Source of the DNA: Pelagomonas calceolata
Taxonomy: Eukaryota; Sar; Pelagophyceae; Pelagomonadales; Pelagomonadaceae
Direction of reading: 5' to 3'
Length of the DNA stretch: 64,000 nt
Assembly: GCA_918797485.1 (NCBI GenBank)
Contig: CAKKNE010000002.1
Coordinates: 3,748,501 to 3,812,500, forward strand
Shown here in pieces: positions 2,415 through 63,797 of the stretch (position 1 is the first letter of the stretch; each line of letters starts with the position of its first letter). The notes beneath the pieces were generated by a model. It had not been told where the DNA came from. It saw only the letters and a list, made by a program, of their open reading frames with translations, and did not search any database. A program made the position numbers and the translations under genes.

Positions 2415-3528
2415 CTAGCCGGGGTCGCGGGGTCCCCGAGGGAGTGGGTGTTGGTCCCGGCCTACTCGGAGAGGCCGTGGAAGAGTCCTGAGAAGGGTGC
2501 CCATCCTCTGCTCCCCCGCAGCGAAGGGAGCGCGTAGGTCCGGGACGATGCCGTCGCGCGTCCTCTTCGACTTTTCACGAAAATATCGCCCTCGCGCCGC
2601 GCCGCGGATGAGGTCCTCGAAGGCGCCGTGGACCTGATGTATGACGGGCACATCCGCCTCCCGGAGCGTGTCGCGCAGCTCCAGCTCCATCGCCGACGAC
2701 CAGATCGTCCGCGCCCCATACTTGTTACAGAGCCGCGTCGAGGTGAAGAAGATGTCGCCGCGCGGGTCGACGCGTAGGCCGGTGTCGCCGATGAGCGTAC
2801 CGACCCACGGCGCCATGGCCGGCGACGCCAGGCCGAACGAATTCGAGACGACCTCCGCCCAGAAGCGGTTCTTCAGGCGCAACACGCTATGCGGAATCGC
2901 CTGCAGGGTGGAAATCAAACATAGGGCTGGGTGCACCCATAGGAATATTATTAATTAACTAACTATCATTTCGGCCGGCAGACACCTCCTAAAAATTCCG
3001 CGCGCGCGCGTTACCCCCCCTCTGGCGCGTAACTAGGGTAACACGCGATGCTCAACATCCGCCTCCTGAGCCCCCCACAGACCACCCTAGGCACAGTTCG
3101 AGGCCTGTGGGATCATTATTACACCGAATTTCGCCCGTTTAGGTCTTGTTTTGGACCTAGGTGACGGGTTTTGCTGATTTAACCCCCCTCCCTCTACTTC
3201 AACTTTACGTTGAACTTCAGTCTGACGCGGCATAAATATCCGAGGTTTACTCCTATAATATTTTGATTTCTACCCTGATCGCCTGCCAGAACGAGCGAGC
3301 CGCCTTGCACGCTTGCGCGCTCATGAACGACTCGCGTCGCGCGTCGTCACCCGGCAAGGCCGATAACTCTGCCTTCAGCACCGCAGCGGCGGCGGCCTCG
3401 CGTTGGCGCGAAACCTCGCGTTGGACGCGTAGAATCGGGAGACCGTTGTCGTCGAGGCCCGCGTCCTCCACGGGCACGGCGAGCGGGCCCACCTCAATGT
3501 CGCCGCGTTGCGCGTCACACCTCATCAA
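2415..3528 (-). CDS. Unrecognised split gene interrupted by an introner (possible retroelement-derived C-terminus)
   Basis: Two open segments, 3274-3528 and 2415-2900, read in one frame once the introner-type intron 2901-3273 is removed (85 codons, then 162 with the stop). Exon 1 ends in SFWQAIR and exon 2 starts AIPHSVLRLKN, so the join repeats the residues made by the target duplication. The pattern SAQA...FW.AIP...RLKN.F...FGLASP, with later GDIFF and a GIVPDLRAP motif, loosely resembles the region after the reverse transcriptase in some LINE proteins; this is a weak family impression, not a firm match. There is no RT core here, so if that is right it is only a fragment. GC is lower than in neighbouring genes. 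The start at 3528 is simply the first Met. Confidence 0.4.
2904..3277 (-). mobile_element. Introner element with TIRs and perfect 8-bp target duplication
   Basis: The two ends are inverted copies of each other: CAGGGTGGAAATCAAA at 2904 and CAGGGTAGAAATCAAA read inward on the other strand from 3277 (15 of 16 match). The element is flanked by identical 8-mers ATCGCCTG at 2896-2903 and 3278-3285. Read on the minus strand, GT at 3273 and AG at 2901 would splice out almost exactly the element (373 nt) and leave the frame open. This is what a DNA-transposon-like introner looks like. Inside it lies the 46-bp segment 3166-3211 that recurs at the right edge of the window. No coding capacity is seen, so it would need transposase from elsewhere. 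Confidence 0.85.
3166..3211. repeat. Repeat R5, copy 1
   Basis: About 46 bp from GGGTTTTGCTGATTT through a C-run to CTACTTCAACTTTACGTT. It matches 63953-64000 almost base for base, differing only in the length of the C run and one A. The 3' end can form a hairpin, TTCAAC with GTTGAA around TTTAC. This copy sits inside the introner 2904-3277. Confidence 0.8.
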
Positions 3529-3620
3529 CTAAGCCCGGACCCCCCGAAACGAAGTAAAACAGGTTTTTTTATAGAGAGGGACGCGGCACGGCCTGCAAGC
3601 GCCACACAGCATCGCGCGTC

Positions 3621-6600
3621 ATGCAGCCGGCGACCTACGCCTCGGTGGCGCACGTCGGCTGGGAGCGGAGCATCCGCTGGGAGGCGCCGGACGACGACGA
3701 CGCCGCGGAGCGCGCCGCGCCCATCGTCGGCGGCGACGCCCGCGTCGCGAGCGGCGCCTGGACGCGCGCCATCCGCTGGGACGGGGACCAAACCGCCGCG
3801 CCGAGCGATGAAACGACGCACGCGCCCGCGGACGAGGACGCGCGCGCCGCGCGCGCGTACCGCGAGCCGGCGGGCCGGCAGTCGCGGCGGCGCGCGGCGG
3901 GGAACCAGCGCCTGCCCAAGGCCGCGAACGCGCGGCCGGCGCAGCTGCACCGCTTCGTGAGCGCGGACACGGCGAACCGCGCCCGGGAGCTCTTCCACCG
4001 GCCGCGCGTCGACCACCGGCTGCTGCGGGCGCCGTGGCGCCTCGCGGCGCGCGGGCGGTCGGCGGCGCAGCGCGGCGCGCGGCAGCTGCGGGCGCGGTCG
4101 CTGGACCAGGTCCGCGCCGAGGACCTCCGGGCGGGCGACGGCGACCTGTTCGTGGGGGAGCTCTCCGAGGAGCGGCCGGGCCTCGTGGCGAACCCGGGCA
4201 TGAGCTTCGCGCTGTGCCGCCTGCGGCGCGGCGTCGAGGGCCGCGCGTCCGACGACGACGACGACCGCGACGGCGTCGCGGTCGACCTAGGGATGGAGGC
4301 GCCGTCGCCGCTGCTCGGGGACCTGCCGGAGCCCGGCCGCGAGCTCCTGGTCGGCGTCTCGAACTTGCAAAGGCGGCCGGTCTTCCCGCACGCGTCGCGC
4401 GACTTCCTGCTGTGCCTCCGGCCGCGGCTGCGCAAGGACCTCGGCAAGGCCGCGGAGGTGGCGTGGACCTGCCGGCCGCTGCGGAAGCACGTCGTCGCGG
4501 CGCTCGGCCAGGGCGAGCCGCGCATCGAGGTGCCGCCGGCCGGGTCGAAGCGGTACGCGGCGCTCCAGGAGCCGCTCGCCGCGTTCCACATCGCGCGCGC
4601 GCTGCTGGCCAAGAGCTCGGCGGCCAAGGGCGACGTCAAGCACGCGACGTTCCCGGCGTCCGACCTCGGGCGCGCACTCTTCGCGTCGGCGCCCGCGCCG
4701 CTCGCGCTGGTGAAGCGCGCGGCGGCCGAGGTCGCCGAGCGCGTGCGCGACGTGCACGGCGAGGCGCTGAAGAGCGTCGAGGGCGAGGACCTCTGGACGC
4801 ACCGGGCCCAGGCGGTCCGGCCCGACGACGTGGCGCTGCGCTTCGCGCCCGAGGACGTGTGCGCCTACGAGTCGGCGTCGGCGTCGCTCAAGCGGCTGAA
4901 GCACCTCGGGTTGCGGCGGCCGCAGCTCCTGGGCGGGCCGGCGGGCGTCGCGCCGGCGTGCCGCAAGCTCTTCGAGGTGAAGCGCGCCGCGGACGCGCGC
5001 GCCAAGGACCTCGAGACGCGCGCCCGGGGCGACCCGGGCCCCGCGCCGTCCCTCGGGGACCTGTGCGCGGCGGCCCGGCGGCGCTGCGCGGAGGCGGACG
5101 CGACGCTCCGCGCCGCGATGCGCGTGCACGAGGAGCTGAGCTTCGCGCCGGCGCACCTGACGAGCGGGTTCTGCGACGCGGTCCTGAAGAAGACGCAGCA
5201 CGCCGTGCTGCGGCTCGAGGGCCCCGGCGACCCGAGCGGCTGCGGCGACGCGTTCTCGTTCGCCCGGTCGACGCTGCGGGAGCTGCGGCGGGGCGACGTG
5301 ATCCACAAGGCGTCGGGCCAGGCCGTCAAGGAGGCCTACGACGAGCGCGTCAACGCGATCGCGCGGCGGCAGCGGCACGCGCTGTCGGGCCGCGGCCACG
5401 ACGGGGCGCACGTGGAGGACGACGCGCTCAAGGACCTGCGGGGCGGCTTCGTGGGCCGCGGCGCGCGGGGGCCCTACGCCACGTCCAGCGGCTACGACGC
5501 CGCCAAGGCGCAGAAGGCGCGGGACCAGAACAAGCGGCGGAAGGGCGGGTCGCACGGGCGGCGGTCGCCCGTCGAGGCCGACGACGACCTGGAGGACCTC
5601 GAGGCGGACCTCGAGCAGGACCTGCTGCAGGGCGAGGCCAAGGACGAGGACGAGCGGCAGCTCGAGTCGTTCCGGCGGGCCCTGCAGCAGGAGAGCAACG
5701 TCCAGCAGGCGAGCGGGCCGCCCAAGTTCCTCGTGCGACGGCTGACGCGGCGGCTGGTCCACGGGCGCGAGGTCGTCGCGGTCACGTTCGTGAACAGTTC
5801 GCACGAGGTCGACCGGGTGGCGCGGCGGACGGGCGTCTCGCTCGAGGCCGACGACGACGCCCTCGTGCTGGACGTGCCGCTGGACGACCGACGCCAGGCG
5901 CCGGGCCCCAAGAAGCTCACACTGCGCCTCGGGGCGAAGGAGGAACCGAAGAAACGCACGGGCGCCGTCAAGCTCAACCTCACGAAACTGCGGGGCCGCG
6001 CCGACGACTACAAGGCGGAGGCCAAGCGCCAGAAGGCCGAGCAGCAGCGCGCCGAGGCGGCGGCCTACCACCGGCCCGTCGCGAAGCGCGAGGGCCCGCG
6101 CGCCGACGCGCAGAACAAGCCCCACGTCCAGCTCGCGAAGCTGCTGCGGCAAGAGTGCCTGAACCCCATGTACGCGCGGCCCGGGTGCCGACCCTTCGTC
6201 CGGCCCGTCTCGACGAAGACGTTCCCGCTGTACAAGACGAAGATCACCAAGCCGATGGACCTCTCGACGATCAAGTCGCGGCTCGAGCGCTACGTCTACC
6301 GGGACCGCGAGGGCTTCATGGCGGACATGGACCTGATCGCGACGAACTCCATCACGTTCAACGGCCCCGAGCACCCGATCTCCAAGGAGGCCCTGGCGAT
6401 GGCGCGCGCGGCGCGCGCGGCGTGCGACTCGTTCGACGACGAGCTGGGCGCGCTGGAGCGGGCGACGAAGGCCATGATGGCGGCGGCGCCGAAGCGGCGG
6501 CGGGCCTCGCCGCCGCCGGCGGCCGCCGCGCCCGCGCCCGCGCCCGGCGACGGCGTCGCGCTCGCCTTCGCCGGCATCGGGCGCGCGCCGGTGCCGACGA

Positions 6601-9277: not shown

Positions 9278-9331
9278 GCGCGTTCCCCTTCCGCGTGCCG
9301 AAGGGTTATCCACGAGCGCGGGGCCCGGGCG

Positions 9332-9535: not shown

Positions 9536-9628
9536 CTCTACTCTACTCTACTATCTGTCCACGCCGGGCGCGCCGCGCCGCCGCCGCGACGCCTCCACGA
9601 AAGGAGCTCGGGCATAGTAGTAGATAAG

Positions 9629-12647: not shown

Positions 12648-12947
12648 TTGTTTGCCGTCGTCGTACGCGCGGAGCAGCGCCTGGCGTCGTGCGCTTTTAG
12701 GCGAGGGTGTCCGGTGTGCTGGCTCGAGCGATGCGTTTCGCGCAGCCGACAGGAGTCCCTCGCGTCTCGAAAAAATATTTTCGGGCTGCAAAGGTGGCGT
12801 GGAGAGATAGGCTTGCTAGAGAGGGGCTAGCGACCAGTAAGACACTAGGCATCCCTAGCAAGCCGCCGGGGCCGGGGCCGCCGCCGCATTTATCGCCACA
12901 AGCTCATAGCTACCTCGCGGTCTTTCTGACTGGTCGTAGATCGCGCC
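12648..12947. promoter_or_regulatory. Divergent promoter region of uL3m and the FG nucleoporin
   Basis: Exactly 300 bp separate two divergent starts, so both promoters must fit here unless transcripts overlap. Repeat R1 lies inside it at 12827-12848. No TATA box is evident; the core signals are not identifiable by eye. Confidence 0.4.
12827..12848 (-). repeat. Repeat R1, copy 3
   Basis: Reads CTAGCGACCAGTAAGACACTAG's 22 bases on the plus strand in two halves, CTAGCGACCAG and TAAGACACTAG; this is the reverse complement of the R1 pattern with one changed base. It is close to a second CTTGCTAG word at 12813. Confidence 0.8.
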
Positions 12948-14738
12948 ATGGCGTTCAGCTTCGGCGCGCCAACGGCGACCGCTGCTCCGACCTTTGGCGC
13001 GCCCGCTCCAGCGGCGGGTGGTTTCTCCTTTGGCGCCGCGACGGCGGCGCCCGCTGGAGGAGGATTTTTCGGGGGCGCCGCCGCTGGGCAGAAGCCCGCG
13101 ACGGGTTTGTTCGGCGCTCCGGCCGCGGCGCCGGCCGCCGGGCTATTTGGCGCACCCGCCGCGGCGCCCGCTGGCGGCCTCTTCGGAGCGCCCGCCGCGG
13201 CGCCCGCTGGCGGCCTCTTCGGAGCGCCCGCCGCGGCGCCCGCTGGCGGCCTCTTCGGAGCGCCCGCCGCGGCCCCTGCAGCAGGCGGTTTCGCCATCGG
13301 GGCCCCCAAGCCAGCCGGAACGGGTCTTTTTGGGGGGACGACAGCACCAGCGCCGGCGGGCGGCCTCTTCGGCGCGACGCCAGCCCCGGCTCCGGGCGGT
13401 CTTTTTGGGGGGACGACAGCACCAGCGCCGGCGGGAGGCCTCTTCGGCGCCCCAGCCGCGGCGCCGGCGGGCGGCCTCTTCGGCGCGACGCCGGCGCCCG
13501 CTGCGGGCGGCGGCCTCTTCGGCGCGACGCCCGCTCCAGCGAGCGGCCTTTTTGGCTCGACGCCGGCGTCCGCCGCCGGGGGGCTTTTCGGGGCCAAGCC
13601 CGCCGGGACGGGCCTCTTCGGCGCGCCGGCGCCGGCGGCGGGCGGCCTCTTCGGCGCGACGCCCGCGCCCGCCTACGGCGCCCCGAGCGCCGGCGGCGGC
13701 CTGTTCGGCGGCGCGGCGGGCGGGGGCCTCTTCGGCCAGCAGCCCGCGTACGGCCAGCCGCAGCAGATGGTCGCGGCGCCGGCGACGCAGCCGGCGACGC
13801 GCTTCGAGCAGCTGCCGGCGACGCCGGCGACGCTCGGCCGCGACGGCGTGCTCGCCGTCGAGAAGCACCTGGCCCAGAACCGCACGCTCCAGAAGCGCGT
13901 CGCGCTCGCGGCGCAGCCCGTCCGCGAGGGCATGGCGCACCTGCGCGAGGCCGTCGCGGCCGCGCGGGGCGCGCTCGAGCGCGCCGAGCACGAGCAGCGG
14001 CGGGCCGCGACGGTGGGCGGCGGGCTGCGGCTGGAGGCCGCGGCGCTGCGGCGGGACGGCGAGGAGCTCGCGGCGCGCGCCTCGAGCCGCAGCGCGGGGG
14101 ACTCGCTCCGCCTCGCGCGCGAGCTGCCGGCGCCGCTGCTCTGGCGCCACCTCGCGAACATGGAGAAGCGCCTGGCCGCGTACGCCCGGGACGTCACGAC
14201 CGTGCGGCCGGCGCGGCGGGACGGCGCGCGCGCCGACGACGACTCCGCGAACTTCCAGCTCGCGCGCGTCCTCGCGGCGCAGCGCGACGCGTTCCTGCGC
14301 GTGGCGGACGACGTGGCGCGCATGCACGCGCGCGTCGACGACGCGCGCCGCGGCGTGCGCCGCCGCGACCCCGGCCTGGACCCCTTCGCCGAGGCGGACC
14401 GCGAGGAGAAGGCGGCCGCGCGCGAGCTCGACGCCGAGATCCGCCTGGGCGCGCAGCGCGCGGCGGCCGCGGCGCCGGCGGCCGCCGTGCCCGGCGTCGC
14501 CGCGCCCGCCGGAGGCCTCTTCGGCAGCGCGCCGGCGCCCGGGGGGAGCCTGTTCGGCGCGACGACTGCGCCGCCCGCGCCGGCGCTCACGCGCACGGCC
14601 ACGCCGGCGACGGGCCTCTTCGGCGCGCCCGCGGCGGCGGCGCCGGCGGGCGGCCTCTTCGGCGCGCCGGCGGCCGCGGCGCCCGTGACGACGCTCTCGG
14701 CGAAGAAGCCCTCGCGCAACCGCAAGAAGGGGCGATAG
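12948..14738 (+). CDS. FG-repeat nucleoporin, Nup58/Nup62-complex type
   Basis: The frame encodes 596 aa. Residues 1-270 are some twenty FG units, mostly of the GLFGA kind, spaced by Ala/Pro/Gly; such regions form the permeability barrier of nuclear pores. Residues about 285-500 form an alpha-helical domain with long coiled stretches and the segment LPAPLLWRHLANMEKRLAAY, which resembles the central coiled domain of NUP58/p45. A second FG stretch (about 505-580) and a basic tail KKPSRNRKKGR follow. FG regions on both sides of a helical core is the NUP58 layout, hence the tentative name; NUP54 or NUP62 would usually have FG on one side only. At DNA level, 13173-13280 contains three tandem 36-bp copies. 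Confidence 0.75.
   Translation: MAFSFGAPTATAAPTFGAPAPAAGGFSFGAATAAPAGGGFFGGAAAGQKPATGLFGAPAAAPAAGLFGAPAAAPAGGLFGAPAAAPAGGLFGAPAAAPAGGLFGAPAAAPAAGGFAIGAPKPAGTGLFGGTTAPAPAGGLFGATPAPAPGGLFGGTTAPAPAGGLFGAPAAAPAGGLFGATPAPAAGGGLFGATPAPASGLFGSTPASAAGGLFGAKPAGTGLFGAPAPAAGGLFGATPAPAYGAPSAGGGLFGGAAGGGLFGQQPAYGQPQQMVAAPATQPATRFEQLPATPATLGRDGVLAVEKHLAQNRTLQKRVALAAQPVREGMAHLREAVAAARGALERAEHEQRRAATVGGGLRLEAAALRRDGEELAARASSRSAGDSLRLARELPAPLLWRHLANMEKRLAAYARDVTTVRPARRDGARADDDSANFQLARVLAAQRDAFLRVADDVARMHARVDDARRGVRRRDPGLDPFAEADREEKAAARELDAEIRLGAQRAAAAAPAAAVPGVAAPAGGLFGSAPAPGGSLFGATTAPPAPALTRTATPATGLFGAPAAAAPAGGLFGAPAAAAPVTTLSAKKPSRNRKKGR
13173..13280 (+). repeat. Tandem 36-bp coding repeat in the nucleoporin
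   Basis: Three almost identical 36-bp units encode GGLFGAPAAAPA in tandem. The DNA identity is higher than needed to keep the protein, so they are likely recent duplications or kept alike by gene conversion. Allele length may vary. Confidence 0.85.
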
Positions 14739-26404: not shown

Positions 26405-28771
26405 ATGCGGAGGGTGTGGAGCCTCACCCTGCTGACCACGGCCGCGGCCCTATCCTTAAGGCCCCGCGGCACGACGAAGCGCCCGGCGACGCCCGCGGTC
26501 CGGGAGAAGGAACTGAACCTGCCGCCCTTCGACCTCGGCGCGAACCTGTCCGAGACGTTGGATGAGGCCGCCGCGCGCGCGGACGGCGCCGTGCGCGACC
26601 GGCTCGGCGCCATGGGTATTGAGGACGTGTCCGGGGACTGGGCGACGCGCGTCCTGGATCTTGGGAGGCGGGCGACGCGGCTCGGCGCGCGCGAAACCGC
26701 GGCGCTCGTGGATTTGAAGCTGAGGGAGACCGAGGCGGCGATGCGCGAGATCGAGGAGGGTGTCAAGGACGGCCTCGCGCCGCTGGCGCCTTTACAATAT
26801 CGCGTCGAGGACGATGCGGCGAAGGCTTTGGATTTGAGCATCGAGATCGAGGGCGTGGACGAGCTGACCGAGGCCGTGTCCGCGGCGGCCGGCGCGCGGG
26901 CGACGGTGCCGACGATGACGTCCCGGAGGCGGTTTAGGAGATTTAGAGCGGCGGCGCGCACGACGGCCATCTGGCGGACCGCGGTCGGGTTTGCGTTTCG
27001 CGTGGCACGAAATCGGCGCAAGTTTAGTGACGCGCAGGGGCCCGAGGCCGTCGCCGCGCGGTCGAAGCTGGCGGCGGACTTCCGGGACGCGTTGTTGAGA
27101 TTGGGGCCTACTTTCATCAAATTCGGGCAGCTGTTGTCGACGCGCGTAGATGTACTACCGCCAGAAGTCATCAAGGAGCTCGCGACGCTCCAAAATGAGG
27201 TGCCTTCGTTTAGTCCGGACCGGGCCATCACAATTGTCAAAGAGGAACTCGGCGTCAAGGACATTTACGACGTCTTCGAGACGTTCGAGCGCGAACCGTT
27301 AGCCGCGGCTTCCTTAGCCCAGGTTCATAGAGCAACACTCAAAGAGAACGGCGACGAAGTTGTGGTCAAAGTCCAGAGAGATGGATTACGGGAGCAGTTC
27401 GACGTGGACTGTGCGAACATCAAGTTCCTAGCTAGGTTAGCCGATAGGTTCGACCCCGAGAACGAGGGCGTCGCTTCGGATTGGAAGGGCATCGCGGACA
27501 CGTCCGAAACGGTTTTGTACCGAGAAATCGACTTCTTAGTTGAAAGGGACGCCGCCGTCAAGTTCCGAGAAGCCTTCGAAGGTAAGAACGGTCAGAAGGC
27601 CATGGACTACGTGAAGGTGCCGCGCACGTACGACCCCTACTGCACGTCCAAGTTGTTAGTGTTGGAGTACGTGCCGGGCACGAAGATTAACGACGTCGAG
27701 GGTCTACAGCAACTAGATGGCGTCGAACTCCCGACGCTCTCGAGACGTTTAACGTTTAGCTACTTGGAACAGTTGTGCCGGCACGGTTTTTTTCATTGCG
27801 ACCCCCACCCGGGCAACGTGGCCGTCGACGACCAGGTGCCGGGCGGCCGGTTGATCTACTACGACTTTGGGATGATGGAGACCATTGAACGCGACGTGAA
27901 GGCGGGGTTCGTGGATTTGGTGTATTCGTTATACAAGAATGAACCCATTATTGCGTGCGACGCGCTCGAGACGATGGGCGTGTTGCGACCGGGCTTGGAT
28001 CGGTTTAGCATCGAGAGGATCGCGAAGAACTACCTCGATTCGTTCTGCGCCACGGTCGAATCCAAGAACGCGAAGGGCGTCACGGGTATCGATGACGGCG
28101 CGGCGAAGTGGGAGACGGAGATGACGGAGGAAGAACAAAAGGCCGCCCGGAAGGCGCGGCGGGCGCAGATCGGCAAGGACCTCTTCGCGACGCAGGCCGA
28201 GCGGCCGTTCGTCTTCCCGCCGAAGTTCACGTTCGTCTTTCGGGCCCTGTCGACGATTGATGGGATTGGCAAGTCCCTGGACGGGGGTTATGATTTGTCG
28301 CGGTTAAGCCAACCGTATCTGAGGGAGTTGGCGGATCTGCGGGACGGGAGTCGCTACGCGACGGCGTTTTCGGAACTCCTGTCGAAGGTCGGGTGGCGGC
28401 CGAAGGACGTGAAGCAGGTCGTCATGGCGCCGCGGACCTTGGCAAGCGCGGACAAGTCCATTAAGAGGATTGAGGCCGGCGATTTGAGGTTACGAGTGCG
28501 ATCGGTCGAGCTCGAGACGCAGCTCCAGAACGTGGAGACGCGGCAGCGGCTCTTCGGGGCGGCCGCCGTCGCGGTCCTCTTGGCGCAGACGTCGCTGGGG
28601 GGCGTCGCCGCGACCTACGAAGGCGCCGCGCGCGTCTGGCGGCTGGTGTTATCGAGGGGCTGCGGCGTCGGCGCGGCGTGGGCGTCGCTCGAGGCCTTCG
28701 GGGCTTATTGTCTGCTGCGCAAGGCGGACCAGAACAAGAAGCGCTTCGCGAACCAGCTGAAGGACTGCTAG
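26405..28771 (+). CDS. ABC1/UbiB-family atypical kinase, likely plastid
   Basis: The frame encodes 788 aa. ABC1K proteins of plastids regulate prenyl-quinone and lipid metabolism in plastoglobules. The N-terminus MRRVWSLTLLTTAAALSLRP looks like a signal peptide followed by a basic Ser/Arg transit region, as needed for a complex plastid. The kinase-like domain spans about 225-560: the family KxGQ motif in TFIKFGQLLSTR, the A-rich nucleotide loop AAASLAQVHRA, the Lys in VVVKVQRDG, the Glu in YREIDFLVE, HCDPHPGN near 464 and YDFGMM near 486. The C-terminal 200 residues include one hydrophobic stretch around VAVLLAQTSLGGVAA. Substrate is not predictable. The start is the first Met and gives the targeting leader directly. 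Confidence 0.92.
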   Translation: MRRVWSLTLLTTAAALSLRPRGTTKRPATPAVREKELNLPPFDLGANLSETLDEAAARADGAVRDRLGAMGIEDVSGDWATRVLDLGRRATRLGARETAALVDLKLRETEAAMREIEEGVKDGLAPLAPLQYRVEDDAAKALDLSIEIEGVDELTEAVSAAAGARATVPTMTSRRRFRRFRAAARTTAIWRTAVGFAFRVARNRRKFSDAQGPEAVAARSKLAADFRDALLRLGPTFIKFGQLLSTRVDVLPPEVIKELATLQNEVPSFSPDRAITIVKEELGVKDIYDVFETFEREPLAAASLAQVHRATLKENGDEVVVKVQRDGLREQFDVDCANIKFLARLADRFDPENEGVASDWKGIADTSETVLYREIDFLVERDAAVKFREAFEGKNGQKAMDYVKVPRTYDPYCTSKLLVLEYVPGTKINDVEGLQQLDGVELPTLSRRLTFSYLEQLCRHGFFHCDPHPGNVAVDDQVPGGRLIYYDFGMMETIERDVKAGFVDLVYSLYKNEPIIACDALETMGVLRPGLDRFSIERIAKNYLDSFCATVESKNAKGVTGIDDGAAKWETEMTEEEQKAARKARRAQIGKDLFATQAERPFVFPPKFTFVFRALSTIDGIGKSLDGGYDLSRLSQPYLRELADLRDGSRYATAFSELLSKVGWRPKDVKQVVMAPRTLASADKSIKRIEAGDLRLRVRSVELETQLQNVETRQRLFGAAAVAVLLAQTSLGGVAATYEGAARVWRLVLSRGCGVGAAWASLEAFGAYCLLRKADQNKKRFANQLKDC

Positions 28772-42091: not shown

Positions 42092-42753
42092 GGCGGCCGT
42101 CGTAGGGCCGGGGCCCGTCTCGCTTGGGAGGAAGGCTGCCCCGGGCGGGCGGCGGGTCCGAATCGCGCCCCGCTGTATCGCACCCGGCCGCGCGCGGCTC
42201 TGTGCTGCGACAGCGTCGAATGAATCGAAGCGGCAACGTGCCGGGTTTAGTCGCAAGGCAGCGCGATATTGTACCTGACCATATTATTTATTAAAAATAT
42301 TATTCGAATATTATTTAATATTATTCGATATTATTTAACAGGCATAATAGTAAAAAAAATGGTACTCCTCCTAAAAACCGCGCGCGCGGGGCACCCCCCC
42401 CCTCGGGCCGACCCCCCGCGACGGCCCATTACCGCACTCACCGGGTGTCCCCCGCCCCGTGCACCCCTCGGCGACGTGCCTGGGGCCAAAGGCAGCCCCA
42501 GACGCCAGTATTTTCCCAATTCAGCCCGTTTTACCAAAATTACCCGCACCATAAAATAATTTTTTTAAATTATCCTTAATTAATAAAATACAAATAATAT
42601 TGATAAAATATAAATAATATAATATAATTCGAATTGAATTTTGAAAAATATGGTATTATAGGTACAATACAGCGCGAAAGCCAGTGCCCCCCGCGCACCG
42701 CGACCGCCGACGGCGCGGCGCGGGACTACGAGTACTACGAGTCGCGACCCGGC
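42092..42753. other. Intergenic with an AT-rich island
   Basis: 42270-42370 and 42540-42670 are almost pure A/T, with repeated TATTATTCGATATTATTTAA-like words, on either side of a C-rich patch (42380-42480). This contrasts sharply with the GC-rich flanks. No gene was recognised. It could be an insertion or a spacer. Confidence 0.5.
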
Positions 42754-49755: not shown

Positions 49756-50958
49756 ATGGCCAAAGCGAAGCCCCAACCAAAGCGCAACACGCGCAGCACG
49801 GCGAAACCCGCCGCGAAGGCCGCGCCCAAAAAACGGCCCGCGGCCGCGAAGCCCGCGCCCAAAAAGAAGCCCGCCGCCGCGAAGCCCGCGCCCAAAAAGA
49901 AGCCCGCCGCCGCGAAGCCCCCGCCGAAGAAGCGGCCCGCGCGCAAGCCGTCGGCGCGCGCCCGCGAGGCCGAGGAGGCGCCCGCGGAGCGCCTGCGCAA
50001 GGCGGCGCGGACCCTCGGGGGCGACGCGGGGCCGCGGACGTCGTCGCGCCCGCGCAAGGCGAGCGCGCGCGCGCGCGAGGCGGCCGAGGACGTGGAGGAA
50101 GACGAGCAGCCGGCGCCCAAGAAGAAGGTGCGGAAGCGCGCGACGCAGTGGGCCGGCGTCCCGCCCGTGAACATCGCGGCGCCGCGGCCGCCCGCCTCGC
50201 GGGAGAAGGGCTACTACAAGGAGCGCGCCCTCCAGCGTCTCGGGGAATTGATCCCCAAGGCGGTCGAGCCGCCCAAAGAAATTAAAAAGTACCCCGTCGG
50301 GCCGCGCCGCGAGAAGGTGTTGACGCTGAGCGACCTCGAGGCCAAGGGCCTCGTGGGCGTCAAGAAGCCCATCCTCCCGAAGAGCTGGCTCGCGCACGAC
50401 GAGGACCTCGTGTTCGACACGGTCGACGTCGTCGTCAAGGCGGAGCCGACCTTCGGCATGTACCTGAAGAACGTCGACGAGCGCTGCGTCGTGCGCGGCT
50501 TCGTCGAAAACGCGGACGCCGTCGATAAATTGAAATGCAACGACGTGCTCATCGCCGTGGGCAACATCGACGCGCGCGCCGTCGGCTTCCGGGCGACGCT
50601 CGCCAAGCTCGAGAAGTGCTACGACACCGGCGCCGCGGCGCTGCGCGTGGCGCGGCCGCGGCTGCGGAGTGACCTCGTCTTCGAGGCGCGGACGTTCGCG
50701 GCGCCGGCCGCGGCGCCGGCGCCCGCGCCGGCGCCCGCGCCGGCTGCCGACGACGACGAGAGCTTCCTGGACCGGCCCGCGCTGCTCGCGCCGGCGCCCG
50801 GGCCGGCCCGCGCCGCCGCGGCTCCGGTCCCCGCGGCCCGCGGCGGCCCCGTCGCGCCGGTGCCCGGGCCCGCGCCGGCCGCGCTCCTGCCGGCCATCGA
50901 CGACGAGGAGGAGGAGGCCGAGCTCGTCTGCCGGCCGCGGAAGGTCGGCGGCGGATAA
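49756..50958 (+). CDS. Histone H1-like basic N-terminus with PDZ-like domain
   Basis: The frame encodes 400 aa. Residues 1-60 are tandem KPAPKKKPAAA units, as in histone H1 tails or nucleolar proteins. A basic/acidic Ala-rich linker runs to about 140. Residues about 225-300 look like a PDZ fold: VVVKAEPTFGMYLKNVDERC, FVENADAVDKLKCNDVLIAV, then a helix RATLAKLEKC. The tail is an Ala/Pro repeat with an acidic end. So a nuclear or DNA-associated protein that binds a partner C-terminus is plausible; no named family. It converges with the split gene at 50980, with 21 bp between stops. Confidence 0.65.
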   Translation: MAKAKPQPKRNTRSTAKPAAKAAPKKRPAAAKPAPKKKPAAAKPAPKKKPAAAKPPPKKRPARKPSARAREAEEAPAERLRKAARTLGGDAGPRTSSRPRKASARAREAAEDVEEDEQPAPKKKVRKRATQWAGVPPVNIAAPRPPASREKGYYKERALQRLGELIPKAVEPPKEIKKYPVGPRREKVLTLSDLEAKGLVGVKKPILPKSWLAHDEDLVFDTVDVVVKAEPTFGMYLKNVDERCVVRGFVENADAVDKLKCNDVLIAVGNIDARAVGFRATLAKLEKCYDTGAAALRVARPRLRSDLVFEARTFAAPAAAPAPAPAPAPAADDDESFLDRPALLAPAPGPARAAAAPVPAARGGPVAPVPGPAPAALLPAIDDEEEEAELVCRPRKVGGG

Positions 50959-50979
50959 GCAAGTTCTTATGTGAACTAT

Positions 50980-51472
50980 TTACTCGTTGACCGCGTGCAG
51001 CGCCGTGGTCGACGACATGGCGACCGAGCCCCCCGGCTCGATGAAGAAGTGAGGCCTGTGTGGAAATCAAATTTTGCGCGCCCCACGCCATCGACGCGAT
51101 GTTGTCTCCGTAGCTGCGTCTGCTCGATGGCGTGGCGATTCCTACGTTTTCCCCGCGACCGTGTCTGCTCGATGGCGTGGAATAGCGTAACTCACTGGTT
51201 GATTTCCACGCAGAGTGGGGCCCCGACATCTTGCCCGGCTTGACGTCGACGCCGTCGCCGTCGACGAAGCGCCAGCCGGCGTCGACGGCGCCCTGGAGCG
51301 ATTTGTACGTCTTCTTGAGGGCCGTGAGCGTCGCGCTCGCTTGCGGGCTGACGTTCTTCTTGAGGGCGGGGTCGGCGACGAACTTCCACGCCTTGCCGCC
51401 CTTCGGCGGCTCGTGGTACGGGATGTGGCACCCGCGGTCGCGAGAGCGGGAGCGACTCGGAGACCGGGACAT
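50980..51472 (-). CDS. Small SR-type protein split by an introner
   Basis: Exons 51210-51472 and 50980-51055 with the intron 51056-51209 give 112 aa in one frame. The start is MSRSPSRSRSRDRGCHIPYH, an Arg/Ser stretch like that of splicing-related proteins. Then comes a compact part: KAWKFVADPALKKNVSPQAS, TALKKTYKSLQGAVDAGWRF, VDGDGVDVKPG. The second exon reads PHFFIEPGGSVAMSSTTALH and ends AVNE. The splice sites are GT (51208-51209) and AG (51056-51057). I know no family name. Confidence 0.7.
51056..51213 (-). mobile_element. Introner element with TIRs and near-perfect 8-bp duplication
   Basis: Ends are CTGTGTGGAAATCAAA (from 51056) and, read inward from 51213 on the other strand, CTGCGTGGAAATCAAC. 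Flanking 8-mers are AGTGAGGC (51048-51055) and AGTGGGGC (51214-51221), 7 of 8 alike. Inside, GTCTGCTCGATGGCGTGG occurs twice (51118-51135, 51163-51180), and CCCCACGCCATCGACGCGA (51081-51099) is a 19-bp identity with the introner in MON1. The 154-nt intron it makes uses GTGGAAAT as donor and CACACAG as acceptor. Confidence 0.9.
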
Positions 51473-56429: not shown

Positions 56430-56510
56430 GGTCTGTTCTCTGTTTGTGTATAAGTATCCTTGTAAGTTCGTGTGCGGTTACGCAGGGCTCCCCCACGCGG
56501 CGGCGGCAGG

Positions 56511-56547: not shown

Positions 56548-56560
56548 TACAAAACAACTA

Positions 56561-59500: not shown

Positions 59501-59650
59501 GAGCACCGCGTGGACGTCGCCGTGCTCCGCCGCCCGATAGAGTTCGTTCGCGCGCGCCGCCCGTTTCACGGACTGGAGGTGCGCGACGGTGTGGGACTGT
59601 TCCCTGGCTTTCCGGAGCGCTTGCGCGCGGCGGCGGGCCTGGGCGCCCAT
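56561..59650 (-). CDS. Large ankyrin-type protein with RP-T-GGT repeats and coiled-coil tail
   Basis: The frame encodes 1029 aa. The N-terminal 400 residues hold helical units with GWYPLHLLCYL, GWIPLQLLC, GNLPLHLLL, GWTPLHAFC and GDLPLHLLAY, i.e. ankyrin repeats of the form common in stramenopiles. Further units run to about 650. Residues about 780-900 are degenerate 9-residue repeats of the RPTTPGGT type (RPNTAGGTL, RPLTPNGSI, RPMTPQTKR, KPCTPGGTF). The C-terminal 110 residues are a highly charged coiled coil with a tandem RRHDRLDELRQ encoded by near-identical DNA at 56596-56662. Function is unknown; scaffold or cytoskeletal binding is plausible. Confidence 0.75.
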   Translation of the reverse strand: MGAQARRRAQALRKAREQSHTVAHLQSVKRAARANELYRAAEHGDVHAVLQWTNDPRRPKLRLLLHALLRHKPLEETIFLHVLRWCPQAAQTPNHDGWYPLHLLCYLTARPTPLMLRALCAAGPIAAKMPTSTGWIPLQLLCQQAFARGKARATPSTITAVRQAYPDGALTYLPDGAEWGDRLPVELLPKELPALELCKQRMTCSDDQLRTFAAQHRSLDLKVRGAYRRRCEEACSNGAVFGVVEVIQELHQETGLVADAADENTGRLLLHDVVARCGATLDGWSLGFCLRACPAAAFHADARGNLPLHLLLANGECEVTLAEIQSLIRLHPLAVGAKAARGWTPLHAFCRRPPQQQDLRVLRLLLRGVSGRKAARTRDEYGDLPLHLLAYACTDQREARAADLDVGRDTQVEWGADRAKPLCQALVGAYPPAWRIKGSRELTACDAAPADLQGVLMGAATTRGPSSLTDVSRAIARAKPRRRKAGAGLPLVKLVEIGADDALQKRLRVEKHRDPEPIPVDLLHTLLKRDAGVGGDVLRAVADAGGAGSCALRDGDGYLPLHLVAKRAPFDERVTPQTVRRVLAYHRPAAFYRGGARKLCPLAAFAVALATGAEDQGASDEGGSQRAGNYFTDEPLAHWRERCLGVARALYESTPKARVVPASDGALACELLPPSPDYDALRAAMRPKQAPLRDNDGERPTHLRCKKAPPRRAKEEDVDKDDPAARRMPEAGATEMTRCIPLLVPAQLDPLADPQRPDTAASDALDLQAYLARPATSVSGVPRPNTAGGTLRPTTPGGTVLVRESVEAQNLKRGRPRTPRSPGGSRLYATPRGTRLLRPLTGGGTERPLTPNGSIEGLPVDERGVRRPMTPQTKRLIKPCTPGGTFRPTTRGGTLLRRSDRHEVATELPGDDSPPHSPHRRSNVTFDDEPLRSFDDAERPRRKSMRPASRKRRRRERAAAAEQEVVDEIARREAAIEARKAAAEENQRLERRRLRKELRQRRHDRLDELRQRRHDRLDAFMGLPRLTSL
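56596..56662. repeat. Tandem coding repeat, two copies of about 36 bp
   Basis: GTCGAGACGGTCGTGGCGCC and GTCGAGGCGGTCGTGGCGCC start two near-identical units that continue GCTGGCGCAGCTC. They encode the repeated RRHDRLDELRQ/RRHDRLDAF at the C-terminus of the large ankyrin protein. Confidence 0.75.
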
Positions 59651-60055
59651 CCTTGCGGCGGGCGAGGCTGCCCCCGAGCGCCCGGCGACACAAAACTGAT
59701 GGATGGGGCTGCCTCCAAGACCAGCGCTCTCCCTGGGAGCCCAACATAACTCCCGAATCTCGCAAAGTCGAGCCTGAGACGACGCGAGAAGCGGAGCGCC
59801 CGAGCCATCGGAGGCCCCTGGAGATCCCTTTTCGGAGGCTGCGTTTTCCCCAACCTAGCGGTAAGACACTAGAGTTGTCAAAATTATTGGCCAACTTTTT
59901 GTGGCATCGGCAGCACGCCAGTCGTCGCATTGGTTCGAGGAGGACTGCAGAGATCGTCGAGCAGCATCGACAGCGTCGCAGTTGAGCAAGCACGCGGGCT
60001 CAACGCCCTTCAGCAGAGCTGCAGCAGAGCTGCGACACGTGACGCTGCCGACGCG
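59651..60055. promoter_or_regulatory. Divergent upstream region of ankyrin and sulfotransferase genes
   Basis: 405 bp between divergent starts, with a short R1 copy at 59855-59872. An upstream Met for the sulfotransferase frame exists at 59930, but the sequence between looks non-coding. Confidence 0.4.
59855..59872 (-). repeat. Repeat R1, short copy
   Basis: CTAGCGGTAAGACACTAG, 18 bp: the same ends as R1 with the middle four bases missing. Confidence 0.75.
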
Positions 60056-61405
60056 ATGGGCAGCGACGACGGCGCGAAGGGCCGCGAGGGCAAGGGCGCC
60101 GCCTCGCTCGGCACGCTGCTCTTCCTCGTGTGCTTCGTCGCGCCGATGCTGCTCGTCGAGCAGTACCTCGTGAGGCGGCGGGGGCTGACGCTCGCGAAGC
60201 TCAAGGGCGAGGTGCAGGCCGTGCGCGCGCACCCGGGCCAGGCTATTGGGGATGCGGTCCGCATCGTCGAGGGCGAGGCGCGCGACGCGATCGAGCGCGG
60301 GCGGAACTTGGAGCGGCACATCGAGGCGATGCTGCACCGCCAGCGGCCGCCCGAGGCCCCCCCGGTCGTGGCGACGCCGGTCGTCCCACAAAAGGTGAAG
60401 AAGCCCCTGCGCGACATGCTGCTGGACCTCGCCTTGCTCGCGCCGCGCGACGCTTTAGCAGTTTTAGATAAGGACCCGCTCGGCGTCGAGCGCGTGACGA
60501 ACGCTTCCGAGTGGCGCTGCCCCGCCGAGCGCCTCCTCTCGTCGAGTAACGCCCCGAGCCGCGAAGCGCTCAGGCGCATGCGCGAGAATCGGGACGGCGC
60601 GTTCCTCTGGTTCGACCACCTCTCCAAGGCGGGCGGCACGTCCTTCTGCAAGTTCGCGCGCAAGAACGTGGGCTTCAAGAGCACGCCGCGCTACTACTGC
60701 ATGCCGTCCGACGGCGCGGACATCCCGGGCACCGACGGGCGGGTGGGGCGGTGGCCCGCTTCACAATTACGGGAGTATTTGCAAAGGACGCGGCACCGCG
60801 TCGTGGCGAGCGAGTGGGACCCCTTCCCGGCGCAGATGCTGGAGTCCTTTAGAGATGACGCGGTCCTCGCGTCGATCATCCGGGACCCCTTGGATCGGTT
60901 GGTCTCGGCGCACAAGTTCTGGGGCGTCTTGAATAATCCATCCAAAAACGCGCCGGATCCCGTGAAGTGGTTGAGGAACATGGACAAGCGGGCCCGCTCC
61001 AGAACGATGGCGCAGGCGCCTCGGGACTACCTCCAGCAGGTCGCGCGGAACAATTTTGCGGTATGGAAGTTCGCGTTTTCTACCGACGGCCGCTTCCACG
61101 ACTGCAAGGGCGACGCGGCCTGCGGCCGGGCCGCCCTGCAGGCCGCCGTGGCCACTCTCTCGAAGTTCCACGTCCTCGCGCCGACGACGTGGCAGGCCCA
61201 CGCGGGGCCGCTCTACGCGCGCCTCGGCTGGTCGAAGCTCGAGGAGGAGCACGTCGTCAACATCGGCACGGTCCAGGACTCGTCGTCGCGGAGGGCGCTG
61301 CCCGACGCGGACTACGCCGCGCTCCGCGAGGCGAACGTCCTCGACGAGATCCTCTGGCACTGGGCCCGGCGCGCGTTCCTGGAGAGCCTGCACTGCGCGC
61401 CGTGA
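60056..61405 (+). CDS. Golgi-type carbohydrate sulfotransferase-like protein
   Basis: 449 aa from the Met at 60056. A signal-anchor helix LGTLLFLVCFVAPMLLVEQY at about 17-37 gives a type II membrane protein. After a helical stem, the PAPS-binding signatures appear: 5'-phosphosulfate loop FDHLSKAGGTSFCKF near 190 and the 3'-phosphate site IIRDPLDRLVSAH near 275. The pattern is that of the sulfotransferase-2 superfamily, which acts in the Golgi lumen on sugars of glycoproteins or polysaccharides. Acceptor unknown. A PAPS-transporter-like gene in the same window could supply its donor. Confidence 0.82.
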   Translation: MGSDDGAKGREGKGAASLGTLLFLVCFVAPMLLVEQYLVRRRGLTLAKLKGEVQAVRAHPGQAIGDAVRIVEGEARDAIERGRNLERHIEAMLHRQRPPEAPPVVATPVVPQKVKKPLRDMLLDLALLAPRDALAVLDKDPLGVERVTNASEWRCPAERLLSSSNAPSREALRRMRENRDGAFLWFDHLSKAGGTSFCKFARKNVGFKSTPRYYCMPSDGADIPGTDGRVGRWPASQLREYLQRTRHRVVASEWDPFPAQMLESFRDDAVLASIIRDPLDRLVSAHKFWGVLNNPSKNAPDPVKWLRNMDKRARSRTMAQAPRDYLQQVARNNFAVWKFAFSTDGRFHDCKGDAACGRAALQAAVATLSKFHVLAPTTWQAHAGPLYARLGWSKLEEEHVVNIGTVQDSSSRRALPDADYAALREANVLDEILWHWARRAFLESLHCAP

Positions 61406-61782
61406 GTAACTTTAGAGGCCTAGAGTTCGAAAAACCCGTTTTAAGGCGCCTGGCGCGCGCGAATCCGCGCGCGCCGACTGGGGCTCACTCGTTTACCAGA
61501 CCAGAGCGCGCATTGATCACACCATTTCTTGAGAAATAGTCCCCCCAGGCGCCCGGGTCCACTGGGCGCCTTGACTTTGTGTCTCAAGTGGGCAGTGACT
61601 GCTCATATCTCTATAGTAGAGCAGGGAGCGACAATGGGAATTCCCGGGAGCGGGAATTCCCGGGAGTTCCCGGGAATTCCCGACCCCTAGATCTCGCTCC
61701 CCGGGAATTGCTCAACTATACATATCTCTCACGTCCCGGACGCCGCGGAACACGCTCTCTCGACCATCTGGCGTACAATATT
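61406..61782. other. Intergenic, 0.38 kb, with hairpins and a palindromic array
   Basis: Contains the hairpin GGCGCGCGC-GAATCC-GCGCGCGCC at about 61453-61476, a second AGGCGCCC/GGGCGCCT at 61550-61574 and the GGGAATTCCC array at 61636-61682. Start region of the small ankyrin gene. Confidence 0.55.
61636..61682. repeat. Array of four GGGAATTCCC-like palindromes
   Basis: GGGAATTCCC at 61636, 61652 and 61672 and GGGAGTTCCC at 61662, with steps of 16, 10 and 10 bp. It lies about 100 bp before the ankyrin start codon, on one face of the helix, as expected for clustered protein-binding sites, but could be simple repeat growth. Confidence 0.7.
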
Positions 61783-62463
61783 ATGAGTGATCGACGCATA
61801 CACAAAGCCGCTAGACGGGCCGACCTCGACGCGTTGCGACGAGAGCTCGCGAAAGGCGTCTCGCCAAACGCATCAGGTCAGTATGGCCGGACGCCTCTCC
61901 ACTGTGTGTGCCGCCGCGCCGGCAACACGAAAGCACGCGTCGCCTGTGTACCTATGCTCCTCCAAGCGGGAGCGGATGTTAATGCGCCGGACGCGGACCA
62001 GTACATACCGCTTCATTTCGCTGCCCGCCAGAGCAACGCGATCGTCGTCGCCGCCCTGCTCGAAGCCGGCGCCGACGTGAACCGGGGCGACGCATACGGT
62101 CAAACGCCTCTTCACTTGGTGTGGCATAGTATTGAAGTCGGGTCTGCATTACTGCTCCTCAGACACGGCGCCGCGGTCAACGCGCAAGACGATTCGGGGC
62201 GCACGCCCCTGAGCAACGCAAGTTACATTGACTCGGAGTCCCGCCGCCGCCTCGTCCCGATCCTCCTCCGCGCCGGCGCCGCCCTCCCCGCGCACACGAC
62301 CAACGCGTACCTCCAGAAAGTGATCGCCGCGGGCGGCTTCGGCCGCTACGAGCGCAACCACCTCGACGCCCTCGCCGCAACGTTCGCCCCGCATTTCTCC
62401 CACCTCCCGCCGGAGATAGTCCGCCTCGTCGTCGAGTACGCCTTCCACGCGGGCTACTACTGA
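61783..62463 (+). CDS. Small ankyrin-repeat protein
   Basis: 226 aa from MSDRRIHKAARRADLDALRR at 61783. Four clear ankyrin units follow: GRTPLHCVCRRAGN, VPMLLQAGADVNAPDADQYI, PLHFAARQSNAIVVAALLEA, GQTPLHLVWHSIEVG, with GRTPLSNAS ending the series. The tail (GGFGRYERNHLDALAATF, then LPPEIVRLVVEYAFHAGYY) resembles the tail type of the two other ankyrin proteins here, with LP-E-VW/V-YAF in place of ILQFWR. Protein-protein binding is expected. Codon use is mixed, with more A/T third positions in the first half. Confidence 0.82.
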   Translation: MSDRRIHKAARRADLDALRRELAKGVSPNASGQYGRTPLHCVCRRAGNTKARVACVPMLLQAGADVNAPDADQYIPLHFAARQSNAIVVAALLEAGADVNRGDAYGQTPLHLVWHSIEVGSALLLLRHGAAVNAQDDSGRTPLSNASYIDSESRRRLVPILLRAGAALPAHTTNAYLQKVIAAGGFGRYERNHLDALAATFAPHFSHLPPEIVRLVVEYAFHAGYY

Positions 62464-62477
62464 GTAAACAAGCAACA

Positions 62478-63797
62478 TCACATTATCAGGTCGCTTCGCT
62501 CCGCGCGCTCCTGGAGCGCGGCGAGCGCGTCGACGACCTCGGCCGTCGGGACGCGCCCGCGGAGCGTGGCGAAGACCAGGTACCGCCCGCGCGGCGCGCA
62601 CGCGTAGGTCCGGCCGCCGGCGGCGGCGCAGGCCAGCGCGCCGCGCTCGCCGCGGCACCGATCCACGAGGCGGTCGTACTCGCGCGACGCGGCCGCGTCG
62701 CCGCCGGGCGCGCAGAGGCACAGCTTCGTGCCGTCCCGCTCAAAGACGACGGCCGCGTGCTCGCAACCGCCACACACGTCCGGCGGCAGGTCGTTGGTCG
62801 CGTCGCGGAGCGCCTGGAACCTGCGTGGACATAGAATTTAGGTGCCCCACGCCATCGACGCGACGAAGATCTCCGCGTTGGTTAATTTCCACACCGCCCG
62901 GCACGCCCCAGCCTCGAGGAGCGCGGCCTCGAGCCGCGCGCGGCTCGCGTGGAACCGCTCGAAGGCGTCCGGCGCCGCGCCGACCAGCGCCAGCACGGCG
63001 TCGTCCCCGAGGCCCGCGACGTAGGCATGCAAAAAGCCCTGCGATCCCAACACGGGCAGGCACACGGGCGTCCACGCGGCGGCCCCACTCGAGAGCGCGC
63101 TCCGCTGCGAACTCAGAAAGTTGACGAGCGTCGCCACGTCGCGCGTTTCCAGTGAAACGGTCCTAGGCTTCGCCAGGCCCGCGAGGCGGTTCTTCCAGAG
63201 CAGGGCGGCGCAGACGACGGGCACCGGTTTCAACGAGGCGACCGCGTCCTTCAGCTCCCTCTGAATAGCTTTGCGGACGCGCCGTTCCAGCGGCACCGTA
63301 GATACGCTCTCCGTCGCGAGGCCGAGCGGCCCTAGGATGGATAGAGACCGGTCCCACGACCGCGCCAGGCCGGCCAACACGAGCTTCGCACTGCCTAACA
63401 ACGCCGCGACGTCGGCGTTCGGCCGCTGCTTGAGCGCGGCGTGGATCTTGTCCGTCAGGCTCGAGAGCACGGCGTCGTGCGCCGCGGCCGTGCAGCGGCG
63501 CAGCGCCGCGGCGCTCTCGCGGACGCCGCTCGCCACGAAGATGAGTTCTCCTCGTCTATCAATCACAATTTTACGGTCGCCGGCGTCGATCTCATTTATT
63601 GATGCGATCGCGACGCACGCGCTCACGACGGCGGACGTCGTCGCGAGGCGCCCGGGGTCCACGCCGCCGTCGCTGCACCAGACGGGCTTGCCCGAGGGGC
63701 TGACGATGTATAATGTTGCTTTTTGTTTTTTTGAGGCGTCTTCTTGCAGGGAGAGGGTGGCGAGGGCCTCTGCCATGGCTCGGAGAGCTGTGTACAA
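62478..63797 (-). CDS. MON1: MON1, Rab7 exchange-factor subunit, split by an introner
   Basis: Exons 62893-63797 and 62478-62820 around the 72-nt intron 62821-62892 give 415 aa in one frame. MON1 with CCZ1 activates Rab7 on late endosomes, leading to fusion with vacuole or lysosome. The N-terminal longin domain reads ATLYIVSPSGKPVWCSDG and IDRRGELIFVASG. The middle shows LKQRPNADVAALLGSAKLVL. The most telling motif is TPVCLPVLGSQGFLHAYVAG, the conserved MON1 PICLP signature. Exon 2 gives the third longin part with RYLVFATLRGRVPTAEVVDA. Without splicing the protein stops at WGT before the last 110 residues. A Met 7 codons in (63776) is an equally likely start. Confidence 0.9.
62821..62896 (-). 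mobile_element. Short introner in MON1
   Basis: Ends are CTGCGTGGACATAGAATTTA and, inward from 62896 on the other strand, CGGTGTGGAAATTAACC. The flanking 8-mers CCTGGAAC (62813-62820) and CCCGGCAC (62897-62904) agree at 6 of 8, a worn duplication. At 62845-62863 it shares 19 identical bases with the introner at 51056-51213, so it is a shortened relative. Donor GTGGAAAT and acceptor CACGCAG match the other introner's layout. Confidence 0.85.

What the first reader, a model, noticed from the sequence alone, without database searches (positions are those of the whole stretch)
2904..62896. One family of introners supplies introns to otherwise intronless genes
Three introns (2901-3273, 51056-51209, 62821-62892) share the same structure: inverted ends of the type CTGYGTGGAAATCAA, an 8-bp duplication of the target, the donor site within the left end (GTGGAAAT or GTAGAAAT) and the acceptor CAG at the right end. 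In each case removal keeps the frame. The sequence shows the ends and duplications; introners with these features are known in Aureococcus from published genome work, so the class is described, but these copies, and the range from 76 to 374 bp, show how one family makes introns of very different size.
Basis: partly seen in the sequence, partly recalled or inferred. Interest (0 to 1): 0.7.

Follow-up and report, generated by a model that had tools for sequence, protein, structure and literature searches.

The report
Introners in Pelagomonas, splice sites corrected
Two of the three segments are copies of a small jumping DNA element that plants ready-made introns into the genes of a marine alga, borrowing one splice site from the gene it hits; the third looks like a related but different element, and the whole class is already known.

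Summary
The inverted ends and 8-bp duplications are real (0 comparable structures in 60 shuffles). The genome fits Pelagomonas calceolata, not Aureococcus (PMC9481584). Copies B (51056-51213) and C (62821-62896) belong to a large introner family: 1,676 exact copies of the 15-bp end, reversed control 0. With coding strand taken only from codon scores, 78 of 78 copies whose duplication matches in at least 6 of 8 bases have GT or GC at its first two bases on the coding strand (background 18%), and the element itself ends in CAG. So the intron is duplication + element, removed exactly, with the donor taken from the target: the mechanism published for Aureococcus (recalled). Copy A (2904-3277, 374 bp) is not in this family: its ends are CAGGG...CCCTG, without a terminal 3' splice site, and a search with it gave 10 matches. 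In the window copy the end matches the introner end at positions 5-15; base 2 decides whether an element finishes in CTG or CAG. That suggests, but does not prove, that introners arose from an A-like element. No RNA was examined.

The parts
51056..51213 (-). Copy B: introner, subfamily I, 158 bp; in sense (minus) reading CTGCGTGGAAATCAACC...TTTGATTTCCACACAG
   Evidence: exact inverted ends; 70.9 bits to a profile built without the window copies; minus-strand coding flanks with continuous frame
51214..51221 (-). Copy B donor-side target duplication, GCCCCACT in sense; GC is the predicted 5' splice site (GC-AG intron 51056-51221, 166 nt)
   Evidence: row window 51056; family rule 78 of 78
51048..51055 (-). 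Copy B exon-side target duplication, GCCTCACT in sense
   Evidence: 7 of 8 match
62821..62896 (-). Copy C: introner, subfamily I, 76 bp, in a MON1-like gene
   Evidence: 36.8 bits to a profile built without the window copies; spliced protein matches PF19037 Fuz_longin_2 (44 bits); one in-frame stop inside the insert
62897..62904 (-). Copy C donor-side target duplication, GTGCCGGG in sense; GT is the predicted 5' splice site (GT-AG intron 62821-62904, 84 nt)
   Evidence: row window 62821
62813..62820 (-). Copy C exon-side target duplication, GTTCCAGG in sense
   Evidence: 6 of 8 match
2904..3277 (.). Copy A: 374-bp element with hAT-like ends (CAGGGTRGAAATCAA), separate low-copy family; differs by 1 base of 374 from the copy at C3:4541880-4542253
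2896..2903 (.). Copy A target duplication, left (ATCGCCTG)
   Evidence: 8 of 8
3278..3285 (.). Copy A target duplication, right (ATCGCCTG)
   Evidence: 8 of 8

Best explanation
B and C are copies of a non-autonomous cut-and-paste DNA transposon that works as an introner. A transposase (not found) inserts it and duplicates 8 bp of the target. Each inverted end reads CTGYGTGGAAATCAA, so whichever way round it lands the downstream end reads TTGATTTCCACRCAG and supplies a 3' splice site. The 5' splice site is taken from the target: an insertion in a gene is tolerated when the 8-bp target begins with GT (about three quarters) or GC (about one fifth to one quarter) on the coding strand. The spliceosome then removes duplication plus element, restoring the original mRNA exactly. 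Shown here: ends, duplications, coding-strand GY rule, frame continuity, copies in both orientations. Inferred: splicing itself, the transposase, selection as the cause of the GY rule. Copy A is a separate, probably related, low-copy element without its own 3' splice site; whether its host gene splices it out is unknown.
For: Genome counts: 850+826 exact ends, reversed control 0. 97 end-pairs collected: sense duplication starts GT in 75 and GC in 18; sense right end AG in 96 of 97. Among 69 with clear coding flanks: GT 52, GC 15, frame continuous 66, insert shifts frame or brings a stop in 59. Of copies with duplication at least 6 of 8: 78 of 78 GY at the sense start, against 5.0% GT + 12.9% GC in coding flanks; the opposite end shows AC/GC in 26 of 78. 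Genome-wide, GT stands at the start of the 8 bases outside 694 of 1,676 exact ends. End base 2 (the A of the acceptor AG when read downstream) is changed in 7 sense-left and 0 sense-right ends of 96; the 96 were filtered for a CAG end, but the only introner this removed was L081_518, which has a 2-base shift. Exact joining gives higher Pfam scores than 12 extra bases in 4 of 5 genes tried (kinesin 192.7 v 184.8; ABC 100.8 v 99.1; XRN 95.7 v 94.0; SNF2 28.3 v 24.7; acyltransferase 22.1 v 22.3, below cut-off and aligned beside the junction), and aligns without gap at the junction with OSM-3 kinesin and with both ABCA4 domains. Both orientations in clear genic copies: 34 v 22, 12 unclear, of 68.
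Against: No RNA evidence was examined. Coding strand comes from a codon model trained on one 64-kb window, and it was also assigned to the 28 of 97 copies without clear coding flanks. Where the two duplication copies differ so that only one has GY, six keep it on the donor side (L048, L065, L070, L078, L081_518, L087) and three on the exon side (L017, L062_530, L080_522); one more (L006_1802) has it on neither; nearly all ten have poorly matching duplications (0-5 of 8), and L081_518 is misaligned by its 2-base shift, so this comparison alone is weak. About half of the sample was picked by an exact-core pattern, so core conservation cannot be judged in it. The five genes were chosen from 13 printed for looking conserved; three of the four gains are small. 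PMC9860276 Fig. 2F reports for 'Aureococcus sp.' a different outcome: both splice sites in the element and 12 extra bases. B would be a GC-AG intron with a weak donor.
Confidence: 0.87

Rival explanations
1. The element carries both splice sites (CTGY|GTGGAAAT ... CAG|) and each insertion adds 12 bases, four codons, to the mRNA, as the reader's limits for B and C imply and as PMC9860276 Fig. 2F describes for an 'Aureococcus sp.' introner.
For: Frame is kept either way; the published example has the same arithmetic, 4 bp + 8 bp (passages read). GT at end positions 5-6 is present in 93 of 97 sense-left ends.
Against: It does not explain GY at the duplication start in 78 of 78. Positions 5-6 are as well kept in the right end (92 of 97), where they would not matter, and are partly fixed by ascertainment. 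Four copies lost GT there (L011, L028, L039, L099_720) but all have GY in the duplication. Exact joining fits conserved domains better in 4 of 5 genes.
Confidence: 0.08
2. The inserts are ordinary transposons that are not spliced; the genes are broken.
For: No RNA data here; A is a recent insertion (1 difference in 374 bases from another copy) with 10 in-frame stops.
Against: 59 of 69 clear genic copies would break the frame if read through, yet the best coding frames on the two sides agree in 66 of 69; the strand-specific GY rule and acceptor asymmetry have no reason to exist without splicing.
Confidence: 0.04
3. For copy A only: A acts as an intron by luck of the target, using CAG of the duplication as acceptor with either GC in the duplication (exact, GC-AG) or GTAGAAAT inside the end (9 extra bases, the reader's version).
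For: Both are in-frame and stop-free options; coding signal over 240 bases on both sides continues in frame.
Against: On the donor side the signal is lost when 450 bases are scored. No relative of the host protein was found in the genome or in Pfam, so the gene itself is uncertain; none of the other three full-length A-type copies has coding signal on both sides.
Confidence: 0.35

Closest known systems
Introner elements of Aureococcus anophagefferens (Huff, Zilberman and Roy 2016, Nature; paper not held; recalled from its abstract)
   Same: Short non-autonomous DNA transposons, target duplication, one splice site in the element and the other taken from the duplicated target, exact splicing. 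Inverted ends and the 8-bp size there are recalled.
   Different: Another genus; I could not compare sequences of the two families. Whether those insert in both orientations I do not know.
Introner-like introns of Pelagomonas calceolata (PMC9481584, 2022; passages read)
   Same: Same genome by size, contig number and organelle lengths; reported intron length peak about 210 bp, compared there with introner elements.
   Different: The passages I saw give only the length peak; anatomy and splice-site source are not in them. Its Supplementary Note 3 was not seen.
'Aureococcus sp.' introner family 4, TARA_AOS_82_MAG_00129 (PMC9860276, 2022; passages read)
   Same: 8-bp duplication; small intron (77 bp by its coordinates); 4 bp of element before the donor.
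   Different: Reported to carry both splice sites and add 12 bp. Sequence not available here, so identity with this family is untested.
hAT superfamily non-autonomous elements (for copy A)
   Same: Ends CAGNG (end rule recalled), 8-bp duplication; the genome holds one hAT transposase element with CAGGG ends and an 8-of-8 duplication.
   Different: That element's inner end sequence differs from copy A's, so it is not shown to be its partner.

Membership tests
Introner (DNA-transposon type, splice site taken from target) | many similar copies inserted in many genes | tested here: met
   1,676 exact ends; 69 of 97 sampled copies with clear coding flanks
Introner (DNA-transposon type, splice site taken from target) | terminal inverted repeats and target-site duplication | tested here: met
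   B and C; duplication at least 6 of 8 in 78 of 97
Introner (DNA-transposon type, splice site taken from target) | one splice site in the element, the other in the duplicated target | tested here: met
   GY at sense start of duplication 78 of 78; terminal AG 96 of 97. Sequence evidence only
Introner (DNA-transposon type, splice site taken from target) | spliced out of mRNA | not testable with these tools
   no RNA reads; indirect support from frame and domain tests
Introner (DNA-transposon type, splice site taken from target) | insertion between nucleosomes | not tested
   no nucleosome data
Introner family of B and C, for copy A | ends CTGY...RCAG and shared interior | tested here: not met
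   ends CAGGG...CCCTG; interior not matched, only about the first 33 bases weakly, 8.3 bits
hAT superfamily, for copy A | 8-bp duplication and CAGNG ends (end rule recalled) | tested here: met
   four of four full-length copies with 8 of 8 duplications and CAG[G/T]G ends
hAT superfamily, for copy A | moved by a hAT transposase | tested here: inconclusive
   one hAT element found in the genome, ends CAGGGCAGCAGAAGG, not matching inside

The most novel reading that the evidence does not exclude
The introner family descends from an A-like hAT element still present in the same genome. A-type ends read CAG[G/T]GTRGAAATCAA in three of four full-length copies and finish in CTG; introner ends read CTGYGTGGAAATCAA and finish in CAG. 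An A-to-T change at base 2 of both ends turned a plain transposon into one that brings a 3' splice site in either orientation, after which only a GY in the target was needed. This would be a traceable one-letter origin of a mass source of introns.
Probability: 0.25. Interest if true: 0.68.

Novelty: new member of a known kind. Interest (0 to 1): 0.42.

Why it matters
It gives a clear anatomy for an abundant introner family (roughly 1,600 copies by my estimate) in an ocean alga with a chromosome-scale genome and RNA data, and a sharp, cheap test between exact splicing and the 12-base addition reported for a related sample. A low-copy, probable relative that lacks the splice site offers a possible before-and-after comparison for how a transposon becomes an intron maker.

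Tried and rejected
One family for all three: rejected. Autonomous partner: the one hAT transposase found (no second match to its protein) sits in its own element with different inner ends; P-element-type PF21787 gave 0 matches, but its control rang nowhere either, so this says little; other transposase families were not searched. The lone A-type end at C1:5176901 was followed as a possible autonomous element; it is a 120-bp fragment with no partner closer than 4 mismatches in the 11 kb read. Copy A's host gene: no second copy in the genome, no Pfam match. Matches at 27409 and 51493 have no credible partner (profile E 0.24 and 1.3). L115 is a lone end; L116 holds one more introner with GT on the donor copy and GC on the exon copy (not in the counts). 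The first profile search was circular for B and C, which were in its training set; it was repeated without them. Rows dropped before counts: of 100 end-pairs three A-type ones (L037, which is the window copy fetched again, L038, L040) leave 97; L081_518 (2-base shift at its end) is also out of the 96.

Full report
What is there. The window holds three pairs of inverted ends flanked by 8-bp repeats: A 2904-3277, B 51056-51213 and C 62821-62896. The repeats match in 8, 7 and 6 of 8 bases. Sixty dinucleotide-preserving shuffles of the window gave no structure passing the same rule. A codon model trained on the window puts all three in minus-strand sequence with coding signal on both sides, and the best frames continue across the insert. 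The spliced host of C matches the MON1-type longin domain PF19037 at 44 bits; the hosts of A and B matched no family above its cut-off.

Which organism. The genome has 32,445,274 bases in 8 contigs; contigs 7 and 8 are 90,574 and 39,373 bases. PMC9481584 describes Pelagomonas calceolata RCC100 as six nuclear contigs of 32.4 Mb, a plastid of 90 kb and a mitochondrion of 39 kb (passages read). So this is very probably Pelagomonas, like Aureococcus a pelagophyte, and not Aureococcus. I did not compare marker genes.

The family. The 15-bp end CTGYGTGGAAATCAA occurs 1,676 times exactly, its reversed control never. The listing is capped; its first 1.55 Mb of contig 1 appear complete for both strands and hold 77 such ends, 40 of them in 20 facing pairs (counted by hand), which suggests roughly 1,600 copies if ends decay independently. 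I collected 100 end-pairs from the window and 104 fetched loci, many of which overlap: three are A-type, 97 are introners, 69 of these with clear coding signal on both sides. The interiors fall into two types, 46 and 42 of 96. B and C match the first type also when the window copies are left out of the profile (70.9 and 36.8 bits). Lengths run from 60 to 206 bp. About half of the sample came from a pattern that fixed the length range, so the length distribution is not representative; among the 37 copies reached through the unrestricted search (15 of them picked as close pairs), 8 are 202-206 bp long.

How it is spliced. The family says otherwise. With the coding strand set only by codon scores, 78 of 78 copies whose duplication matches in at least 6 of 8 bases have GT or GC at its first two positions on the coding strand; coding flanks show GT at 5.0% and GC at 12.9% of positions. 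In the clear genic subset with such duplications it is 40 GT and 15 GC of 55. The other end of the duplication shows the mirror signal (AC or GC) in only 26 of 78. The element's own downstream end is AG in 96 of 97; the exception, L081_518, has a 2-base shift at its end. At base 2 of the end, which becomes the A of the acceptor AG when read downstream, 7 upstream ends are changed and no downstream end of 96 (two-sided p 0.016; the filter for a CAG end removed only L081_518 and the A-type copies). Genome-wide, GT opens the 8 bases outside 694 of the 1,676 exact ends. The simplest reading is an intron made of duplication plus element, with a donor borrowed from the target and an acceptor supplied by the element, removed without trace.

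Tests against the 12-base alternative. Both models keep the frame, so frame cannot separate them. Conserved domains can. For five genes, chosen from the 13 printed because they looked conserved, I compared the protein joined exactly with the protein carrying four extra residues: exact joining scored higher in four of five (kinesin by 7.9 bits, SNF2 3.6, ABC 1.7, XRN 1.7) and 0.2 bits lower in the acyltransferase, whose match is below the cut-off and does not span the junction. The exactly joined kinesin and ABC proteins align without a gap at the junction to OSM-3 kinesin and to both ABCA4 domains. Four copies have lost the GT inside the end but keep GY in the duplication (L011, L028, L039, L099_720). 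The published intron-length peak of about 210 bp also fits 203 + 8 better than 203 - 4.

Results that do not fit or are weak. Of 97 copies, six have GY only on the donor-side duplication, three only on the exon side (L017, L062_530, L080_522) and one on neither (L006_1802). The duplications of these ten match in 0-5 of 8 bases, and L081_518 among the six is misaligned by its shift, so they may be rearranged copies, or the rule may have exceptions. The frames on the two sides disagree in 3 of 69 clear genic copies. PMC9860276 Fig. 2F (passages read) reports a 12-bp addition for an introner in an 'Aureococcus sp.' metagenome assembly; I could not see that sequence, so I cannot say whether it is the same family read differently or a different one.

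Orientation and phase. Using an interior landmark, clear genic copies lie in both orientations, 34 against 22 with 12 unclear of 68 (two-sided p 0.14). Because the ends are inverted, each end reads as a 3' splice site when it lies downstream, so orientation need not matter. Intron phases 0/1/2 are 24/9/22 of 55, in step with the availability of GT in coding sequence (6.9%, 1.8%, 6.3%), as reported in general terms for introners (Huff et al. 2016, recalled; not held).

Copy A is something else. Its exact ends occur five times in the genome. A search with the whole element found 10 matches, a lower bound: four full length including itself, the rest partial. One copy on contig 3 differs by a single base in 374, so A or that copy moved recently. 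All four full-length copies have 8 of 8 duplications. Of the three outside the window, two show no positive coding score in any frame on either side, and the contig 5 copy shows one on each side but on opposite strands (5 and 16 over 240 bases; none over 450). A lacks a terminal AG. Its host reading frame could be restored by two options that use CAG of the duplication as acceptor, but the coding signal on the donor side is lost over 450 bases and the host protein has no relative found here, so its status as an intron is open.

A link between A and the introners. Both have 8-bp duplications, and three of the four full-length A-type copies share GTRGAAATCAA at positions 5-15 of both ends (the contig 5 copy has GTACAAATCAA); they differ from introners in the outer bases, CAG[G/T] against CTGY. 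Base 2 decides whether the element finishes in CTG or in the acceptor CAG. Beyond the ends the similarity is weak (8.3 bits over about 31 bases). CAGTGTRGAAATCAA occurs 22 times; at least two of these (in L058 and L116) are introners whose upstream end has changed, so this pattern alone does not mark A-type copies. Descent of the introners from an A-like hAT element is an attractive but unproven reading. The ends CAGNG are a recalled hallmark of hAT; one hAT transposase element was found (C4:4499549-4503199, ends CAGGGCAGCAGAAGG, duplication TTGCTCGC), with different inner ends.

Verdict. Literature searches were made; among the papers they listed I found no description of splice-site anatomy for Pelagomonas introners, but I read passages of only two papers, supplements could not be read here, and most subscription papers are not held.

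Noticed in passing
L036:3749-7399 (G000:C4:4499549-4503199): A complete-looking hAT element: 15 of 15 inverted ends, 8 of 8 duplication, 721-aa frame with the hAT dimerisation domain; its protein has no second match in the genome.
   Followed up: partly
window 63951-64000 (continues to G000:C2:3812566): Right-end fragment of a further A-type element, 88% identical to copy A over 114 bases, ending CAGTGTGGAAACCAA in reverse.
   Followed up: partly
window 42328-42410: Weak similarity to copy A (12.7 bits) in a stretch that is AT-rich, then C-rich; may be compositional.
   Followed up: no
window 12930-14735 (+): Long frame with many tandem repeats of the type GGCCTCTTCGGC (GLFG-like units), as in nucleoporins (repeats; nucleoporin reading from memory).
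   Followed up: no
window 49808-49972: 33-bp tandem repeats encoding lysine-, alanine- and proline-rich units in a 408-aa plus-strand frame, histone H1-like by eye.
   Followed up: no
L015, L033, L085, L097: Pairs of introners only about 70-143 bp apart, leaving short stretches between them.
   Followed up: no
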